DNA from: Haloglycomyces albus DSM 45210
GTDB lineage: Bacteria > Actinomycetota > Actinomycetes > Mycobacteriales > Micromonosporaceae
Assembly: GCF_000527155.1 (NCBI RefSeq)
Contig: NZ_AZUQ01000001.1
Span: forward strand, 1-64,000
Direction of reading: 5' to 3'
DNA: 64,000 nucleotides
Positions 1,867-45,773 of the stretch are shown here, piece by piece (positions within the stretch are counted from its first letter, which is position 1; every line of letters starts with the position of its first letter). The notes beneath the pieces were generated by a model, which was not told the origin of the DNA, did not search any database, and saw nothing but the letters and a program-made list of their open reading frames with translations. The position numbers and the translations under genes were made by a program.

Positions 1867-1881
1867 GTTTGCAGTGCAAAC
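1867..1881. promoter_or_regulatory. operator-like palindrome, copy 1
   Basis: GTTTGCAGTGCAAAC: two 7-base half-sites in inverted order around one central base. It lies 26 bases before the start codon of the leftward operon. The identity with copy 2 (4404-4418) extends to 23 bases including flanks; copy 3 is at 11231-11245. Spacing and symmetry suggest the binding site of a dimeric phage regulator. Confidence 0.6.
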
Positions 1882-2473
1882 TTTTGACCAACACGCTACA
1901 CACATTTGAGGTCTAAGTACACTCTGAAATATGCCGTGACACATCTAACATGGGTGGCATTCACGCCCCCGCTGTCCCCGCGAAACGGGCTACCTCTATT
2001 TCACTAGGGATATAGCTACCCCCCCCCTGCTCATACGGGCATTGCAGCGGGAGGACAAATAGGACATACCGGATTACAGCCCCAGGTCACAGCACTGCAA
2101 TTGGGTAGTTACTAATGGTTATCATTTGTGCCTCAATCCGCTATGCCGCAACCCCAAAACACAATGAATACATCATTTCCGCAGTTCAAATTGCGAATTC
2201 ATTCATCGAAACTTAACACTTCAACAGCAGATTTGGTATTAAAATACGTTTTGACTGGTAGATAGGGTATGGCCCCCATCACTTCCGATGCACCTCACCG
2301 CCGCGTCTGTGCCGCCACGGCTCTGTACGGGTTCCCTCGGTTGTTTTCGCAGGTCATAGCACCATCCAGTAAGGCCGGTATTTTGGAGGCTTCCTGCCGA
2401 AACAACAGCCGGTTAAGATGTCAGACCTCCCCATATATATGATTTCAGTCATATGTGGTTAAACGGCGTGGAG
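1882..2473. other. noncoding region between divergent transcription units
   Basis: About 590 bases without a credible gene. It is more AT-rich than the flanks and carries a C9 homopolymer near 2021-2030, an inverted motif around GAATTC near 2200, and paired CATATATATG and CATATG palindromes at about 2433-2456. It should hold the promoter of the leftward operon on one side and that of the hairpin array on the other. No tRNA or array of repeats is visible. Confidence 0.45.
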
Positions 2474-2500
2474 TTTTTCTGAATATATAGGTAGAGGGGT
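2473..2500 (+). promoter_or_regulatory. AT-rich promoter-like repeat, copy 1
   Basis: GTTTTTCTGAATATATA followed by a G/A-rich stretch. A near-identical block with a two-base TA insertion recurs at 4232-4260, again just before a structured noncoding stretch and an HNH gene. The TATATA core could serve as a -10 element; no clear -35 box is seen. It could also be a recombination boundary. Confidence 0.4.
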
Positions 2501-2753
2501 TCGAGCCGCGACGGAGGAAGCGGCGAGAAGAGCCGCGACAATCATCGGCGACGGTAGGAGCCGATGAAAAGAATCCAAGCGGCCCTTGGTGGGCCGCTGT
2601 CGAGTCGAGATCCCATCGAGACCGACAGCGTCGGCTTGGGCCGACGCAGCCCTAGCGGAGTCGGCCGACTCGACTCGACCTACCGGTCGAGTGAGCCGAG
2701 GAGAGGCGGTGAGCCTCTACGAGGCTCACCTTAGGACTCTTACAATTAAGAGA
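2495..2753 (+). ncRNA. candidate structured RNA: array of perfect hairpins with possible kissing loop
   Basis: Successive perfect stems with short loops: 2542-2549/2560-2567 (8 bp), 2578-2585/2591-2598 (8 bp, loop TTGGT), 2597-2602/2623-2628, 2628-2635/2640-2647 (8 bp, loop TTGG), 2673-2680/2685-2692 (8 bp, loop TACC), 2708-2717/2721-2730 (10 bp, loop TAC) and 2737-2742/2747-2752. Loop bases CGGTAGG (2552-2558) are the exact complement of CCTACCG (2679-2685), a possible kissing contact. An alternative 11-bp pairing, 2599-2609 with 2669-2679, competes with some of these stems. The array ends one base before the ATG of the downstream HNH gene, so it is either an independent RNA or a long structured leader. 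No known RNA family is recognised. Confidence 0.5.
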
Positions 2754-3752
2754 ATGAGATTCAACGATGACGAATGCATATTTTGCGATACTTGGTCTTC
2801 CCCTAGAGGGGAACATCTTCTACCTCAATGGGTGATGAGGTTTCACGCCGGCGACTGTCCGGGGGAACACAGAGCCGAGGTAAATGGTGAACCGCTCACC
2901 TTGGCTAGTGGTGCGCCGGTTAGGGTCGATACTCCCATCAAATCACAATTTCAACTCCCCTGCTGCAACAACCACAACGAGGAACTAAATGCAAATTATG
3001 AGTATCGTGCTACACCGGTTGTCAAAAAGATGCTGGGTGGGATCGCTGATGATCCTGTCTGGCCCGTCCTTAATGATGATGAGGTGTTCGAAGCGTCTCG
3101 GTGGTGGATCAAAACAGTCGCGTTGCTGGCCCATCGTTGTACGACGGTGTCATGGGCAAAATTTAGGTACCAACTCAATAGTGACGACTCGATTAGTTTT
3201 GATGATTCTGTATACGATTCTATTGGCCAGGGGCGCATCCCTGGTGATATGAGTGCGTGGCTCGTTGTCGCTGACTCCGCAACGATTGCTGATCCCTACC
3301 AGGTGCTTAATCGGATACCGCTGGCAACTATTTCGAAATCTGGGGCAACACCAACAACTCCGTATGTCAGGAATTTTGGACTGAGAACCAGATTCGATCG
3401 ACAGGTTTTTGTCCAGGTTGCTCATCACCCAAACGCGGAAATTGTTCACCCCGATGAGGTGTCTGGCAACGCTGTTCGAATCTGGCCGACCTCAACCCGT
3501 CTAGCCCTCAGCGAACTTCCACTTCTAAATTCCCAATGTCTGTACGCGTTTCAAAATAGGTTTCTAGTTGGCGGTAGTATGACGGGGCTGAATGGACACC
3601 AGGGCCTAATCTACTTCCGGGCGTTCAATCCGATCTGGTTCCGCACCGATGATCCGGGCATACTAGCCTACGTACCTGACTCGTATACGAACGATGAACT
3701 TGATCAGGTTCGCACGGTTGTTTCGCAGGTCCGCCAGGCGCGCTCTAGCTAA
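2754..3752 (+). CDS. HNH-type zinc-binding endonuclease-like protein
   Basis: 332 residues from the ATG at 2754. An upstream extension of the frame to 2586 is rejected because it reads through the hairpin array. The N-terminus carries C8-x2-C11, then EHLLPQW (20-26), and CNNHNEELN (71-79), where His74 takes the place usually held by the second Cys of the distal zinc pair. This layout (CxxC, EHxxPxW, CxxC/H-N) is that of the widespread HNH family in actinobacteria and their phages. Residues 100-332 form a long domain of unknown role. An AGGA ribosome site is separated from the ATG by a 16-base hairpin. The gene is noticeably less GC-rich than the tail genes, suggesting separate acquisition. 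Confidence 0.7.
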   Translation: MRFNDDECIFCDTWSSPRGEHLLPQWVMRFHAGDCPGEHRAEVNGEPLTLASGAPVRVDTPIKSQFQLPCCNNHNEELNANYEYRATPVVKKMLGGIADDPVWPVLNDDEVFEASRWWIKTVALLAHRCTTVSWAKFRYQLNSDDSISFDDSVYDSIGQGRIPGDMSAWLVVADSATIADPYQVLNRIPLATISKSGATPTTPYVRNFGLRTRFDRQVFVQVAHHPNAEIVHPDEVSGNAVRIWPTSTRLALSELPLLNSQCLYAFQNRFLVGGSMTGLNGHQGLIYFRAFNPIWFRTDDPGILAYVPDSYTNDELDQVRTVVSQVRQARSS

Positions 3753-3770
3753 CAGGTCATCAAGCCAACC

Positions 3771-4214
3771 CTATTGTTGGTCAGGCGCTTTCATTGGATA
3801 TGTACCCACGCCATTTTGGTGAAACACCAACCATTCCTTAGCAGCACGTCCGGTCATCCAATCGCTGGAGTGGAGGTCGACGTCTAGGGTATCGGGGGTC
3901 TGGCAGAGCCAACCGGTGACAGATCCCGAGCCGGATATGATCGGACGGACCCGGCCGAACCACACGTCTGGATATGGTTCTGGCTCTGAATCGGGATCGA
4001 TGGGCACTGTCCTATGACACGAAATGCTGGCGCTCAGGCCGAGAAATTTTATCGAGGCGGATATGTCGGTATCGTTGGCGCACCGCATCGCGATGCGCCA
4101 CGTGAACTGCACTGCCGCAGTCAGCATCCCGGCGGCTGCGGTAAATAGCATAATTTCCCAATACCAGGGCATGTTTTCAACATATCGGGGTGCGAGGAAT
4201 TTTTTCTGCGCCAC
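3771..4214 (-). CDS. small membrane protein, unknown function
   Basis: A 147-residue protein with a single predicted transmembrane helix at about residues 18-38 (WEIMLFTAAAGMLTAAVQF) after a short positively charged N-terminus, followed by a polar region with several Cys, an acidic Pro-rich patch (DPDSEPEPYPD) and a C-terminus ending APDQQ. I do not recognise the family. It converges on the HNH gene, whose stop is 19 bases away, and lies between the two copies of the AT-rich promoter-like repeat. A role in superinfection exclusion is possible from position and topology, but this is speculation. Confidence 0.5.
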   Translation of the reverse strand: MAQKKFLAPRYVENMPWYWEIMLFTAAAGMLTAAVQFTWRIAMRCANDTDISASIKFLGLSASISCHRTVPIDPDSEPEPYPDVWFGRVRPIISGSGSVTGWLCQTPDTLDVDLHSSDWMTGRAAKEWLVFHQNGVGTYPMKAPDQQ

Positions 4215-4231
4215 GAGGTTAAAAACATGGT

Positions 4232-4260
4232 GTTTTTTCTGAATATATATAGTAGAAGGT
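4232..4260 (+). promoter_or_regulatory. AT-rich promoter-like repeat, copy 2
   Basis: TTTTTTCTGAATATATATAG then TAGAAGG: same block as 2473-2500 with one extra TA. Both copies precede a hairpin-rich noncoding stretch and an HNH gene on the plus strand. Promoter function is inferred from the TATATA core and location. Confidence 0.4.
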
Positions 4261-4263
4261 TTT

Positions 4264-4400
4264 TTAGTCTCCCGGCTTCCTAGTCGGGTGTACCCCTCTC
4301 CCCTCCACGGTGTCGCTACCGTGCCCCTGGTGAGGTTGAAATATCAGGGCTGTCCAGCCTAAATTCCCTAACCAGGGGGTCTATTGTGCGACTTATTGTC
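4264..4400 (+). other. structured noncoding stretch before the packaging genes; possible cos region
   Basis: Contains CACGGT/ACCGTG (4306-4311 with 4318-4323), a long-range 8-bp stem CCCCTGGT/ACCAGGGG (4324-4331 with 4371-4378), and inside it the small hairpin GGCT/AGCC (4348-4359). In cos-type actinophages the cohesive end lies just before the HNH/terminase genes, so this is a good candidate place for it. An RNA leader is the alternative. No overhang sequence can be named from the sequence alone. Confidence 0.35.
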
Positions 4401-4403
4401 AGG

Positions 4404-4418
4404 GTTTGCAGTGCAAAC
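4404..4418. promoter_or_regulatory. operator-like palindrome, copy 2
   Basis: GTTTGCAGTGCAAAC, in the same orientation as copy 1 and identical over 23 bases including flanks. It is 26 bases before the chosen TTG start of the HNH gene, the same distance as copy 1 from its gene. Confidence 0.6.
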
Positions 4419-4444
4419 TTTCACATCGAAAGAGTGGTGTCCTA

Positions 4445-4756
4445 TTGGCATGGTCAACTTCAACTCGCCGCCATGATCTCCCACCTGAGTGGCCAATGTT
4501 GCGCCGAGCGGTGCTTAATCGGTCAGGCGGGTTGTGTGAACACATCCGGTATGACACCGGGGAACGATGTGGCGTCGCTGGCACCGACGTTGACCATGCT
4601 GTTGCGGCCCACGACCACCGGGTGGAAGCCCTACAACTAGTGTGCGACTGGCACCACTCCCGCAAAACGGCTCGTGAGTCGGCTCATGGTCGACGTATCG
4701 CCCGCGCTGAACGGATTAGATGCGCCGAGGCAATCATGAACGGAGAATCCCCCTAG
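4445..4756 (+). CDS. phage HNH endonuclease of the packaging module
   Basis: 103 residues from a TTG start, giving MAWSTSTRRHDLPPEW, the N-terminus typical of actinophage HNH proteins located next to terminase. Motifs are C31, C42, D50-H51 and C67-x2-H70-H71-SRKT, the paired zinc ligands and catalytic histidine of the HNH fold. In HK97-like phages such nucleases work with terminase at cos during DNA packaging. The start at 4445 keeps the palindrome at 4404-4418 outside the gene. Its TAG stop shares a base with the GTG start of the next gene. Confidence 0.8.
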   Translation: MAWSTSTRRHDLPPEWPMLRRAVLNRSGGLCEHIRYDTGERCGVAGTDVDHAVAAHDHRVEALQLVCDWHHSRKTARESAHGRRIARAERIRCAEAIMNGESP

Positions 4757-11230: not shown

Positions 11231-11245
11231 GTTTGCAGTGCAAAC
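11231..11245. promoter_or_regulatory. operator-like palindrome, copy 3
   Basis: GTTTGCAGTGCAAAC with no mismatch to copies 1 and 2, though here the flanks differ. It lies 15 bases before the ATG of the head-tail connector gene, inside the late operon, in the 66-base gap after the capsid gene. A repressor-binding block to transcription within the late genes is one possible role. Confidence 0.6.
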
Positions 11246-21650: not shown

Positions 21651-21748
21651 TTGCTATGAAGAAGCCCCTTCGGGCTTCGTTGTGCTTAATGTTTAGTCGC
21701 TTAACACCATAGCAAGGCCCCCACTCCTCATGGAGTGGGGGCCTTTTT
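21651..21748 (+). ncRNA. candidate small RNA with three-way junction and strong terminator
   Basis: TTGCTATG (21651-21658) pairs with CATAGCAA (21708-21715) and encloses two hairpins, GAAGCCC/GGGCTTC (21661-21678) and GTG-TTAA/TTAA-CAC (21682-21707). Directly after it comes a 12-bp terminator stem (21716-21727 with 21732-21743) followed by T5. The compact fold ending in a terminator is typical of a bacterial sRNA. The promoter is not obvious. Confidence 0.45.
21716..21748 (+). terminator. rho-independent terminator
   Basis: Perfect 12-bp stem GGCCCCCACTCC/GGAGTGGGGGCC with loop TCAT, then TTTTT. It would end rightward transcription from the phage late region before the oppositely oriented DUF4238 gene. 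Confidence 0.88.
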
Positions 21749-21854: not shown

Positions 21855-22793
21855 TCAGTACCGTACCCATTGCGGCTGCGAAAACTTCATCTCCCGAGTG
21901 CGTGGTTCTGGAATATCAAAATCATCAAAAGGGTTAGAATCAGGATGGTAGTAGACTGCTCTATGCGAATTGTACAGCGTATGGTAATTCAACCATCTTG
22001 CCAGATGAAAATCTCCTTCTACTTCATCGTCATATTCCTTCGCTCCCAGGTTTCCCAAGATCAGCGCGCACCGCGCACTAAGAGGCACAAAAACGATCTC
22101 AGCATTCCCCATCCCCATTCCTCTGAAAGGACTTGAAGAATCACTAGGTAGAACTACGGGCGTGTCAGATGTCCCCAATTGAGCTTTCTTAAACCTCACT
22201 AGGCGCCATGGACGGCTGTACACAGCTTCCATTACTGGCTCCAGTGAACCGCTTATTGCGCTTAGATGATAGTGAGAATCAACCTTTTCCTTATCGATCC
22301 TCTCCCGTTCCTGAGCGCAATACGAATCCACTTCGGACTCACTAATACCCGAAGGAAGGTTCAGAAATTTCCGCAACTGATCAGGACTTCGTGCACTTAT
22401 ACCAAGCTTCGACAACTCGCGGTACATTTCTTCAGCCTGTTGCCGCTTATTTGTTCCCCGAATGAACTGAAGAGCAATCCACCGAGCAATCGTATCCCTC
22501 GAATCATCGGCAAGAGGCCAAATATTCTCCTTAAATACTTGCTCGAATGATTTCGCTGCTTCAGACTCAATTATTCCCAATTGGGATTCAAAAGCGTCCG
22601 GACTAGTATCTTCCTGTCGAATGGTATAGAAATCGTTCTGGACTGTCGCGTCTTTTATTGACTGGATATATGACTTATTACCGCCACGAGGCAAACGAGT
22701 TACCTGTTGCTTTGGGTTTGCAAACCGACGCAGGTAAAACTTTGAAACTACGTGGTGCCGACGCGCGTGTCTCCGACTCTTGTTCCTTGCCAT
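21855..22793 (-). CDS. DUF4238 family protein
   Basis: 312 residues. The opening MARNKSRRHARRHHVVSKFYLRRFA is the signature of DUF4238, whose members start with H-H-hydrophobic-PxFYLRxF. The rest is polar and helical, with YHPDSNPFDDFDIPEP near the end. The family has no proven biochemical role and occurs often in mobile DNA. Here it sits between lysis genes and integrase, transcribed against the late genes, and is clearly AT-richer than they are, so it is probably a lysogenic-conversion gene. Phage defence or exclusion is a guess. Confidence 0.75.
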   Translation of the reverse strand: MARNKSRRHARRHHVVSKFYLRRFANPKQQVTRLPRGGNKSYIQSIKDATVQNDFYTIRQEDTSPDAFESQLGIIESEAAKSFEQVFKENIWPLADDSRDTIARWIALQFIRGTNKRQQAEEMYRELSKLGISARSPDQLRKFLNLPSGISESEVDSYCAQERERIDKEKVDSHYHLSAISGSLEPVMEAVYSRPWRLVRFKKAQLGTSDTPVVLPSDSSSPFRGMGMGNAEIVFVPLSARCALILGNLGAKEYDDEVEGDFHLARWLNYHTLYNSHRAVYYHPDSNPFDDFDIPEPRTREMKFSQPQWVRY

Positions 22794-23072: not shown

Positions 23073-23420
23073 TCACATCACTTCGCGGCTCACGGGCCGC
23101 GCACTGGTAGTCGAACAGCGAACGCGGAGATGGGCTACCCCACTCATTTGAAACGCCAACACCACCAGCGCACCTGACAGCATTGGCGTTTCAGAGGTCA
23201 TTAAGGCTATTAAACTTCCCTCACTACGTAGTGAGCCAAATTCGGCCCCTCCGTATTGGAACTCAGCACCTTGAAGCAAATACACTCCAAAATCTCTAAC
23301 GAACTCCATAACGTAATCACGGGCTTCAGGTGGAATCTCAGCTTCACGTATTCGCAGGAAATCAATTACGCGGCGATCCAGGTGTTCTTCTAGCTCACGT
23401 GGGATCTTTCGTTGGTTCAT
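23073..23420 (-). CDS. hypothetical protein overlapping the integrase gene
   Basis: 115 residues from the ATG at 23420, which has AGGAG 9 bases upstream; the ATG at 23429 lies against the same AGGAG and is too close. The start region overlaps the integrase 3' end by 26 bases, so the two are probably co-transcribed. The N-terminal 50 residues are helical and charged (REAEIPPEARDYVMEF); a hydrophobic stretch lies at about 80-95 (MLSGALVVLAFQM). No known family. A recombination directionality factor would be a sensible test because of the coupling. Confidence 0.5.
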   Translation of the reverse strand: MNQRKIPRELEEHLDRRVIDFLRIREAEIPPEARDYVMEFVRDFGVYLLQGAEFQYGGAEFGSLRSEGSLIALMTSETPMLSGALVVLAFQMSGVAHLRVRCSTTSARPVSREVM

Positions 23421-24945
23421 CGGAGCCATCTCCTAGATATATTGCCGCCCACCGATTTACCCCTGTATGCGCATGGGCTGGGAGCGGTACCAGTATCCAA
23501 TTTGGTTGGATAACGGGCTGCTCGTCTTGACTCCAGATCTTAACAGACACACGAATATCGACTAGCCCCTGACGCCGTTCCTCAACGCTCGCTTCATTCC
23601 ACCATTCCCTCCATGTGGTATCAAGCTTGCGCCATTCAACACGTGGTGATGGGTCATGTTCGAACTCAGCTTCCTTGAGCTGGTTTGTTAGCCCCTTTAG
23701 GCGAGATATGTATGCGTCCATATCCCCTTCATATAGCCCATGATTCCATTCTTGACGCACCCCCTCAATCACATATTTGAGCTGCTCGATTTCTTCCTGC
23801 TTATCAGACGCCGGAATCTCGACACGCTCCACTCGGAGCGAATCACCTCGCTTATCCATGAAGTGCGCTTCCAGTAGCTCATCGATCACCCGATATGGGA
23901 TACTGGTCCGCGACTTGCAGTTTGAATAGTTCTTGTAACCCTGTATATGCCGATAGAAGAGTTCTGGCTCTGTCGAATCTTTCTGACCCGCCTTTTTTCT
24001 GGATACGGGGCATACCGTATAGATCCCATTACATTCCCCGCAACGTATGAGTTTACGACCAAGAACATTATATTTGAGACTCTTGGATTTTCGGGGTCCC
24101 TGTCGGTTCGAGTTAAGCCGTCGCCATTCGTCCAACGAGATTATTGGCGGAAAAAAGCGAATCGGAACGCCGTCCGTGTCTGAAACCAACCTCCTGCCTC
24201 GAATCGAGCTACGTCCAGGTCGTTCATAGCGACAGCCCGCAAGGGCAGGGGAACGCATCAGCTCCGACAAGTTGTGTATTGACCAGTGATCATTGCCGCT
24301 AAGTGTCTTAACACCATCATTCTCTAGTTGCTCGATGATCCTAGGAAATGAATCACCGTCCAAGCGTGCGTTGACGATCCGACGAAGGACAGCAGCGCGA
24401 TCTTGATCCATACGGTAGGTCCCATCCTCCTCACGATAAATCCAGCTAGGCAAATTGCCTGTCGGTCTTCCATGCTGGCGAGCGTACTCATGCCACCGGC
24501 GGACTCGTGACTTGATTTGAGCCAGCTCCATCTCCGCCATACCGGCCAACTGAGTGAGCATCATCCTCCCAGGAGGAGTGGTCGTATCGATTTGAGCTTC
24601 CGTTATCGCAAGCCCCTTGTCGCGTTCTTGAAGCCAGTCATCCAGTTCAAGAACACCACGCACTGTACGCCCCAAGCGGTCAACCTTCCAGGCAACAATG
24701 AGGTCATATTTTGATGCAGCCTCATCAGTTAGCCAGGTTCTTAGGTCTGCACGGTCGAACGGATTTTTTTCGCCGGACACCCCATTATCGATAGCCCAAG
24801 CAACCACGGTCCCATAGTGGCTCTTGGCGTACATCTCGATAATGTCCTTTTGTCGATCAACGGAGTCATCGTCGGTTTCGTCGTGTGACAGGGAGAGTCG
24901 AACGACGCCCAGGATACGACGTTTGCCATTGGGGGGACGCATCAC
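23395..24945 (-). CDS. int: large serine recombinase (phage integrase)
   Basis: 516 residues, starting at GTG 24945 or ATG 24942 behind AGGAG. The N-terminal resolvase domain has GVVRLSLSHDETDDDSVDRQ with the nucleophile serine near residue 18-19, and WKVDRLGRTVRGVLELDDWL with the catalytic arginines. A recombinase domain follows (about 160-270), then a zinc ribbon with CGECNG around 315 and later Cys, and a coiled-coil region near 385-430. It should integrate and, with a helper, excise the prophage between attP and attB. It lies at the right edge of the prophage. Confidence 0.93.
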   Translation of the reverse strand: MMRPPNGKRRILGVVRLSLSHDETDDDSVDRQKDIIEMYAKSHYGTVVAWAIDNGVSGEKNPFDRADLRTWLTDEAASKYDLIVAWKVDRLGRTVRGVLELDDWLQERDKGLAITEAQIDTTTPPGRMMLTQLAGMAEMELAQIKSRVRRWHEYARQHGRPTGNLPSWIYREEDGTYRMDQDRAAVLRRIVNARLDGDSFPRIIEQLENDGVKTLSGNDHWSIHNLSELMRSPALAGCRYERPGRSSIRGRRLVSDTDGVPIRFFPPIISLDEWRRLNSNRQGPRKSKSLKYNVLGRKLIRCGECNGIYTVCPVSRKKAGQKDSTEPELFYRHIQGYKNYSNCKSRTSIPYRVIDELLEAHFMDKRGDSLRVERVEIPASDKQEEIEQLKYVIEGVRQEWNHGLYEGDMDAYISRLKGLTNQLKEAEFEHDPSPRVEWRKLDTTWREWWNEASVEERRQGLVDIRVSVKIWSQDEQPVIQPNWILVPLPAHAHTGVNRWAAIYLGDGSDEPTKDPT

Positions 24946-44829: not shown

Positions 44830-44986
44830 AATCCAAGACCCAGTCCAGGTGGGCCAGGTGGAAACGATCCACTTGGACGGCAACCGCCGCATCTGTTAGC
44901 GGCGGCAGAGCTGCCTATACCGTCAGAAAACTCGATTACCATGAATGCCCCGACGAAACTGGCGAGCTTCGAACGACGTGTAGAAG

Positions 44987-45121
44987 CGGTAGAGCTGGAG
45001 GGGAGCTCAGGTTGTTCCAGGTGCTGCAGATTTGCGCGAGGAGGATTCGTTGCGACCTTCAGGTCGTGAGAATCCCCCACAGCGTAAAGATGTAGTGCCT
45101 GGGGCAAGCTGAGCGGTCACC
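44987..45121 (+). repeat. 135-base interspersed structured repeat, copy 2
   Basis: Gap-free match to 31650-31784. Hairpin GCGACC/GGTCGT (45052-45067) keeps pairing through a G-C to A-T exchange and a G-C to G-U exchange. A degenerate half unit CGGCAGAGCTGCCT lies at 44903-44916, as at copy 1. Its final bases contribute the stop codon of the opposite ceoC-like gene (45117-45119). Confidence 0.7.
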
Positions 45122-45773
45122 TCCCCAACACCGTGCGGATGGTATCTTCCGCTTCTTCGTTGCAGACGAAAACCAGTTCGTCTTTGGCTTCCAAGGTGTC
45201 GGCCGGGGTCGGCGCGATGACTCGTGCTCCCCGGAGGATGGCGACCAGTGCCGCGTCTCCCGGGAGCTGCAGGTCATCCACCGTTGATCCGACCAAGGGA
45301 TTGTTGGCAGCGAGGGTGAACTCCACCAGGTTCGCTTGGGATTGGCGGAAGGTCATCAAGCGGACCAAGTCGCCGACGCTGACGGCCTCCTCGACCAACG
45401 CCGCCAAGAGGCGTGGTTTGGAGACGGACACGTCGACGCCCCATTCTTGATTGAACAGCCATTCGTTCTCGGCTCGATTGACCCGGGCCACGACACGTGG
45501 CACGGCGAACTCGGTTTTGGCGAGTAGGCTGACCACCAGGTTGACTTTGTCGTCTCCGGTTGCCGCTACGGTGACGTCACAGGTTTCCAGGGCCGCCTGT
45601 TGCAGGCTTTCCAATTCGCAGGCGTCGGCCAACATCCATTCGGCTTCGGGAACGCGTTCGGGTTTCAGCATGGACCGGCGTTGTTCCACGAGCAGGACTT
45701 GGTGGCCGTTCTCGACCAGTTCGGCGGCGATCGACCGTCCGACGTTTCCCGCTCCGGCAATGGCGACTCTCAC
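45117..45773 (-). CDS. ceoC: TrkA family potassium uptake regulator (CeoC-like)
   Basis: 218 residues from GTG 45773, in a GTGA overlap with the preceding gene and an AAAGGTGGGG site. RCK_N nucleotide-binding fold VAIAGAGNVGRSIAAELVENG, then a C-terminal TrkA_C domain (VEFTLAANNPLVGSTVDDL). It gates K+ transport in response to NAD(H) or c-di-AMP, depending on family. Paired with the next gene as ceoB/ceoC in mycobacteria. Confidence 0.85.
   Translation of the reverse strand: MRVAIAGAGNVGRSIAAELVENGHQVLLVEQRRSMLKPERVPEAEWMLADACELESLQQAALETCDVTVAATGDDKVNLVVSLLAKTEFAVPRVVARVNRAENEWLFNQEWGVDVSVSKPRLLAALVEEAVSVGDLVRLMTFRQSQANLVEFTLAANNPLVGSTVDDLQLPGDAALVAILRGARVIAPTPADTLEAKDELVFVCNEEAEDTIRTVLGR

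What the first reader, a model, noticed from the sequence alone, without database searches (positions are those of the whole stretch)
2495..2753. Array of perfect hairpins with a possible kissing loop before an HNH gene: new structured RNA candidate
Seven or more perfect stems of 6-10 bp stand almost end to end in 210 bases. A hairpin loop (CGGTAGG, 2552-2558) is the exact 7-base complement of the tip of another stem (2679-2685). An 11-bp long-range pairing (2599-2609 with 2669-2679) competes with local stems, so two conformations are possible. The array stops one base before the HNH start codon. I know no RNA family of this shape; IscB omega-RNA was considered and rejected as no RuvC domain is present. 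The HNH partner makes an RNA-guided or RNA-regulated nuclease system, or a leader that controls nuclease synthesis, worth testing.
Basis: partly seen in the sequence, partly recalled or inferred. Interest (0 to 1): 0.78.

Follow-up and report, generated by a model that had tools for sequence, protein, structure and literature searches.

The report
Folded RNA leader before prophage nuclease
A virus dormant in a bacterial chromosome carries a strongly folding stretch, probably RNA, right after a promoter-like sequence and before a nuclease-like gene; the folding is real, but no relative of it was found, so its job is only a hypothesis.

Summary
The hairpin array at about 2495-2753 is real. The region folds at -143 kcal/mol, 8.5 sd below dinucleotide shuffles. 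It holds 9 perfect stems of 6 bp or more against 0.8 expected, and an 11-bp long-range pairing reached by 0 of 200 shuffles. The 7-base kissing match is exact, but 386 of 2000 shuffles give one too. The array starts just after a promoter-like element found exactly twice in the genome (2474, 4234); a similar element precedes the packaging genes of the locus with the closest terminase in the family. The setting is an inferred integrated actinobacterial prophage. 10 of 10 homologues of the HNH-like gene that were folded have no such array just upstream. No relative of the RNA was found in the collections searched, so covariation could not be tested. Two folds are nearly equal in energy; one buries and the other exposes an in-frame GTG start (2709). 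Best reading: a structured 5' leader that gates nuclease synthesis, as hairpins do for T4 homing endonucleases. An RNA-guided nuclease is not supported.

The parts
2457..2501 (+). promoter-like element P1 (GGTTAAA ... TTTTTCTGAATATATA-GGTAGA-GGGGTT)
   Evidence: TTTTTCTGAATATATA occurs exactly twice in the 3.5-Mb genome, here and at 4234; the two places align over about 45 bp. The start of transcription was not determined; about 2493-2497 is inferred from spacing.
2498..2534 (+). hairpin H1: 2498-2502/2530-2534 enclosing 2505-2509/2520-2524, loop GACGGAGGAA
   Evidence: pair probability 0.91 and 0.93
2542..2567 (+). hairpin H2, 8 bp, loop GACGGTAGGA holding the kissing 7-mer 2552-2558
   Evidence: pair probability 0.98
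2578..2598 (+). hairpin H3, 8 bp, loop TTGGT
   Evidence: pair probability 0.99
2599..2679 (+). fold A: 11-bp helix 2599-2609/2669-2679 closing two inner hairpins (2617-2638, 2639-2666)
   Evidence: 0 of 200 shuffles reach 11 bp
2628..2647 (+). fold B: local 8-bp hairpin, loop TTGG
2673..2692 (+). fold B: local 8-bp hairpin, tip TACC; 2679-2685 complements the H2 loop
2691..2729 (+). 3' domain in fold A (2691-2697/2723-2729 and 2702-2707/2713-2718); GTG 2709 lies in the tip loop
2698..2711 (+). candidate ribosome-binding site GAGGAG (2698-2703) and in-frame GTG start (2709-2711) for the HNH-like gene
   Evidence: sequence
2708..2730 (+). fold B: perfect 10-bp hairpin that buries GTG 2709
2737..2752 (+). 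6-bp hairpin directly before ATG 2754; contains TACAAT (2741-2746), a possible -10 box for a leaderless message
   Evidence: the -10 reading is by eye
2754..3752 (+). HNH-like gene (332 aa from ATG 2754; 347 aa if from GTG 2709)
   Evidence: C8, C11, E20, H21, C70, C71, H74 and N75 invariant in the alignment of it with 4 homologues; G+C 0.51 against 0.56-0.63 in 14 late-side ORFs
4217..4262 (+). second copy of the promoter-like element (P2), ahead of the packaging-type HNH ORF (4406) and the terminase genes
   Evidence: a similar element 166 bp before an HNH-like ORF in L066

Best explanation
The array is the structured 5' leader of a transcript that starts at the phage promoter-like element ending near 2490 and runs through the HNH-like gene. 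The leader has two folds of nearly equal energy. In one (A), an 11-bp long-range helix, possibly helped by pairing of the H2 loop with CCUACCG, leaves the GUG start at 2709 in an open loop. In the other (B), a row of local hairpins, the start is locked in a 10-bp stem. The leader thus keeps nuclease synthesis low or conditional during the phage cycle. Promoter, leader and nuclease form an extra cassette placed ahead of the usual late promoter and packaging genes. Shown here: the pairing in the sequence, the two folds by computation, the duplicated promoter-like element, and the absence of arrays directly upstream of the homologous genes that were folded. Inferred: transcription, the start codon used, the switch, the cassette, and the nuclease activity.
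For: Folding far beyond chance, somewhat stronger on the strand that carries the promoter-like element and the gene. The stems differ in sequence from one another and each is perfect, which argues for selection on pairing and not for a repeated protein site. TTTTTCTGAATATATA occurs twice in the genome, directly before the array and before the packaging operon; a related element sits in the corresponding place in the locus with the closest terminase of the family. Folds A and B lie within about 2.3 kcal/mol, and GTG 2709 goes from 0.95 unpaired (A) to 0 (B). Structured leaders that control phage homing endonucleases are described for T4 I-TevI, I-TevII, I-TevIII and segB and Aeh1 mobE (PMC2988022, passages read).
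Against: No transcript data. No relatives, so no covariation. Energy models of G+C-rich RNA often give near-equal alternatives (recalled), and no control was run on how often shuffles are bistable. The switch is not clean: in fold A the Shine-Dalgarno sequence is partly paired (unpaired 0.20, 0.37 and 0.03 at 2700, 2702 and 2703) while in B it is open (0.92-0.99), and with no constraint GTG 2709 is 0.59 unpaired. Only 2 of 84 pairs of the + strand fold are G-U, so the other strand folds nearly as well. ATG 2754 fits the homologues (M1 invariant; in one of the four I chose that start), and TACAAT 7 nt before it would suit a leaderless message that bypasses the array. The homologous genes that were folded do without such a leader.
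Confidence: 0.4

Rival explanations
1. A stand-alone or processed noncoding RNA of the phage, stabilised by its folds and possibly self-associating through the loop pair; the HNH-like gene is only a neighbour.
For: Compact fold, loop complement, own promoter-like element. Phages carry structured RNAs of unknown role such as ROOL and GOLLD, often near tRNA islands, that assemble partly through kissing loops (PMC12286853, passages read); in three mycobacteria a tRNA cluster encodes both GOLLD RNA and an HNH endonuclease (PMC6582537, passages read). In phage Sycamore seven tRNA genes lie upstream of the HNH gene and terminase.
Against: The scan found no + strand terminator-like site in or just after the array, so transcription should run into the gene. 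About 19% of shuffles have a kissing match. No Rfam match.
Confidence: 0.22
2. A DNA-level element: origin, packaging or recombination site, or a relic of cassette insertion, whose palindromes act as DNA.
For: Lies near packaging genes and beside A+T-richer DNA (41-43% G+C in 100-bp steps from 2101, 2201 and 2401). The stems are nearly pure Watson-Crick (2 G-U of 84 pairs on the + strand, 5 of 83 on the - strand), so both strands fold well, as dyads in DNA would.
Against: The dyads differ in sequence, long-range pairing is present, and the + strand folds about 13 kcal/mol better than the - strand. No stretch with as many stems was found in 20 loci with related terminases, taken from 20 of the 30 other genomes that had one.
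Confidence: 0.15
3. A processive antitermination RNA of the put type that modifies RNA polymerase for the late operon downstream.
For: Sits right after a promoter-like element upstream of about 17 kb of mostly rightward phage ORFs; HK022 put RNA acts alone on RNA polymerase to suppress pausing and termination (PMC9378689, abstract read).
Against: The packaging operon has its own promoter-like copy at 4234 with only ordinary folding after it (4255-4480: z -1.1), and a minus-strand ORF lies between. No sequence link to put was tested.
Confidence: 0.1
4. Guide or scaffold RNA for the HNH-like protein (RNA-guided nuclease).
For: Adjacency only.
Against: Arrays absent directly upstream of 10 of 10 folded homologues; no Rfam match and no HEARO match in the genome (where no control rang either); no guide-like repeats; no curated family for the protein.
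Confidence: 0.03

Closest known systems
Structured leaders of T4-type homing endonuclease genes (I-TevI, segB, Aeh1 mobE; seg43(25))
   Same: Phage gene for a nuclease with RNA structure at or next to the translation start (PMC2988022 passages).
   Different: Here about 250 nt and nine alternative stems, in an actinobacterial prophage, with a protein not shown to be a homing endonuclease; several free-standing T4 endonuclease genes are promoter-less by that review, whereas this one has its own promoter-like element.
T4 genes 38 and 25 split ribosome-binding sites
   Same: Hairpin between Shine-Dalgarno and AUG (PMC3014915 passage); here AGGA 2733-2736, hairpin 2737-2752, AUG 2754.
   Different: The spacing left here would be about 1 nt, shorter than the 5 and 11 nt reported for T4.
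GOLLD and ROOL RNAs
   Same: Phage-borne structured RNA with possible loop-loop contact, at a place where phage Sycamore carries tRNAs.
   Different: Much smaller here (many GOLLD exceed 800 nt); no Rfam match; no homologues found.
HK022 put RNA
   Same: RNA element early in a phage transcript (abstract).
   Different: No test of function; the next promoter copy has no such array.
HEARO / IscB omega-RNA
   Same: RNA next to an HNH-type gene (recalled).
   Different: No match; RuvC was not searched for; the homologous genes folded lack the RNA.

Membership tests
Phage nuclease leader that controls translation | RNA structure overlapping the translation start | tested here: met
   GTG 2709 buried in fold B, ATG 2754 directly after a 6-bp hairpin; by prediction only, start codon not known
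Phage nuclease leader that controls translation | Downstream protein is a homing endonuclease | tested here: inconclusive
   HNH-like residues invariant in an alignment of 5 but no family match and poor models (mean pLDDT 31.7 and 37.5)
Phage nuclease leader that controls translation | Structure changes expression | not testable with these tools
   needs reporter fusions
Any Rfam family (HEARO, GOLLD, ROOL, introns, tRNA) | Covariance-model match | tested here: not met
   0 matches at gathering score in 64 kb; 0 at E up to 10 in 2200-2900; ARAGORN 0 tRNAs in the window
Retron | Reverse transcriptase in the genome | tested here: not met
   PF00078: 0 matches in the own genome, control rings in 3 of 14 genomes
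Type III toxin-antitoxin RNA | Near-identical tandem RNA repeats before the toxin gene (recalled) | tested here: not met
   longest direct repeat family is 16 nt, three scattered copies, 75% identity
RNA-based prophage origin (Alma, LadyBird type; PMC7157519 passages) | Prophage without integration cassette, RNA beside parABS | tested here: not met
   serine integrase at 23395-24942; parABS not searched
Intrinsic terminator array | Stems followed by T runs | tested here: not met
   no + strand site between 2495 and 2753; two overlapping - strand sites at 2575-2598, with 2.4 per shuffle of the whole 2.9-kb region. The phage has a stem followed by TTTTT at 21714-21745
put-type antitermination RNA | Suppresses downstream termination | not testable with these tools
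   needs a transcription assay

The most novel reading that the evidence does not exclude
A new class of bistable phage RNA: an 11-bp long-range helix with a loop contact competes with a row of local hairpins, and the choice between them, perhaps set by a ligand, protein or phage signal, opens or closes the start codon of a nuclease carried as cargo.
Probability: 0.12. Interest if true: 0.7.

Novelty: new variant of a known kind. Interest (0 to 1): 0.4.

Why it matters
If transcribed, it would be an unusually elaborate structured leader for a phage nuclease gene, in a lineage (actinobacterial prophages) for which the searches made here turned up no described family of this shape. It would extend the T4 principle, RNA structure holding back phage nucleases, to another group of phages, and it makes a clear prediction about a switch at GTG 2709. 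As it stands it is a single sequence without known relatives, so its generality is unknown.

Tried and rejected
Relatives of the RNA: Rfam at both thresholds; blastn of 2200-4300 against phages, no match; blastn in 354 family genomes: 29 genomes with matches at E <= 0.01, one of them the own genome, the rest short pieces at E 5e-4 to 0.01, which I judged to be chance without looking at each; exact patterns from the array or its promoter-like element in viral contigs, 0 each; a covariance model of the single sequence in 354 genomes with the stricter filters: 7 with E <= 0.01, one the own genome, the best other 1.8e-4, which lies across predicted reading frames (the other five were not checked for coding); the same model over 33 sources, 19 matches up to E 10, best non-self E 0.039. 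Genome contigs and metagenomes were not searched for the RNA itself.

Relatives of the HNH-like protein: phages none, viral contigs none, plasmids 6 records, family 7 of 354 genomes including own, class sample 2 of 394 including own, genome contigs none with the single protein and 4 Glycomyces with the alignment (contig lengths equal to the 4 already found). 10 were folded; the weak or split hits L006, L007, L008 and L086 were left out.

Structure: two AlphaFold runs gave unusable models, so no fold search was made. Papers: four searches aimed at described phage leaders or RNAs listed nothing that I recognised as matching in the rows shown; this is no proof of absence from print. Three more served for comparison.

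Other strongly folded stretches in loci with related terminases were looked at for nine of them; those seen were mostly one long hairpin, and L077 7600-8100 was the most array-like. L066 8280-8530, just after the promoter-like element of that locus, is also among the stronger ones (-3.2 sd) but runs into the HNH-like ORF.

Full report
What is there. The window is the first 64 kb of a single 3,535,419-base contig. I infer an integrated prophage that spans the contig junction: terminase, portal and packaging-type HNH ORFs run rightward from about 4.4 kb, a serine integrase lies at 23395-24942, leftward ORFs go on into the contig end (read by eye, not family-searched), and a palindrome is shared by both parts. 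Attachment sites were not determined. The closest terminases in the phage collection are 47% identical or less, in Streptomyces phages.

The observation. The region folds far below chance on the + strand (z -8.5) and somewhat less on the - strand (z -7.2). Nine perfect stems of 6 bp or more, six of them non-overlapping, compare with 0.8 in 300 shuffles. The 11-bp long-range pairing was reached by 0 of 200 shuffles, whereas a kissing 7-mer appears in 386 of 2000. In 618,338 bases of window and fetched loci (overlapping loci counted) no other 250-nt stretch has five perfect stems of 7 bp or more. By energy for its G+C the array is strong but not unique: a host intergenic hairpin near 44950-45110 and eight 200-nt windows in related loci score lower.

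Two folds. Taking the RNA from 2495, the row of local hairpins (-135.9 to -136.0) and the long-range fold (-133.7) are close to the minimum of -136.3 kcal/mol; the loop pairing, not modelled, would favour the long-range fold. If the RNA began at 2490, GGUAG would pair with CUACC and the long-range fold would be the minimum (-139.0), but spacing from TATATA puts the start further down (inference).

The start codon. ATG 2754 agrees with the homologues but has no Shine-Dalgarno sequence at normal distance. There are three possibilities: an in-frame GTG at 2709 with GAGGAG five bases before it; a split site with AGGA 2733-2736 across the hairpin 2737-2752, as in T4 genes 38 and 25 (passage in PMC3014915) but with a shorter spacing; or a leaderless message from TACAAT 2741-2746. 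With GTG 2709 the two folds act as opposite states for the start codon: unpaired probability 0.95 in fold A and 0 in fold B. Against a clean switch, the Shine-Dalgarno sequence is partly paired in A (0.03-0.37 at three of its bases) and open in B, and without constraint the GTG is 0.59 unpaired. No control was run for how often such bistability arises by chance.

The cassette. TTTTTCTGAATATATA occurs exactly twice in the genome, before the array and before the packaging-type HNH ORF, and the two sites align over about 45 bp. In 22 sequences (window, phage Sycamore and 20 loci with related terminases) the pattern TATAT-N0-3-GTAGA occurs at only three places: these two, and in L066, 166 bp before an HNH-like ORF (named by eye) in the locus whose terminase is closest within the family. 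My rough estimate, not from a call, is one to three chance matches in that amount of sequence, so position, not number, is the argument. In L066 the element leads to packaging-type ORFs with no second gene like this one and no row of perfect stems, though the stretch after it folds rather strongly (-3.2 sd). I infer that array plus HNH-like gene is an added unit. The gene's G+C (0.51) is below that of 14 late-side ORFs (0.56-0.63), but the integrase (0.52) and the ORF at 21855 (0.47) are also low.

The protein. The label HNH rests on invariant C8, C11, E20, H21, C70, C71, H74, N75 in an alignment of five and on my recall of such motifs; Pfam, NCBIfam and PADLOC gave no match, PHROGs only E 0.087, the PDB sequences none. 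Homologues lie in Glycomyces genomes and on Streptomyces, Rhodococcus and Embleya plasmids.

Conservation. Upstream regions of 10 homologues, 60 shuffles each, gave z -2.33 to +1.51, against -8.12 here; one plasmid homologue (L092) has four perfect hairpins further up, about 470 nt away. No relative of the RNA itself was found by the searches listed in Tried and rejected. Covariation, the standard test of a functional RNA, is therefore not possible with the data at hand.

How it most likely works. I commit, at 0.4, to a structured 5' leader that restrains or conditions synthesis of a cargo nuclease. Precedent: very stable RNA structures sequester the ribosome-binding site of T4 I-TevI, with similar arrangements for I-TevII, I-TevIII and segB and Aeh1 mobE, and phage 25 seg43(25) has a predicted very stable hairpin just upstream of its site (PMC2988022, passages read). 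Rivals are a stand-alone RNA (0.22), a DNA element (0.15), an antitermination RNA (0.10) and a guide RNA (0.03); about 0.1 is left for something else, such as a structure without function.

Verdict. A real and striking structure, private to this prophage as far as could be searched. The link to the nuclease is by position; the RNA-guided reading is disfavoured.

Noticed in passing
window 1867-1881, 4404-4418, 11231-11245; L033 13122-13136 and 18078-18092: The near-palindrome GTTTGCAGTGCAAAC occurs exactly five times in the stretch taken as the prophage; it looks like a repressor operator.
   Followed up: partly
window 44950-45110: Long imperfect hairpin between ORFs outside the prophage; the 301-nt stretch 44950-45250 folds at z -8.0 and holds the lowest G+C-corrected energy in the window.
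   Followed up: partly
L077 7527-7970: In another locus with a related terminase a structured stretch lies between a tRNA-Arg gene and an HNH-like ORF, with CGCCCCTAACGGGGCG twice; the model of the array gave no strong match there.
   Followed up: partly
L092 842-1033: Four perfect hairpins, one of 16 bp, about 470 nt upstream of a plasmid homologue of the HNH-like gene.
   Followed up: no
L065 41878-43661: Phage Sycamore carries seven tRNA genes in the stretch upstream of its HNH gene, near the end of the record that precedes the terminase.
   Followed up: no
window 3771-4214 (-): ORF on the minus strand between the HNH-like gene and the second promoter copy; no PHROGs or PADLOC match, only sub-threshold Pfam hits.
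   Followed up: no
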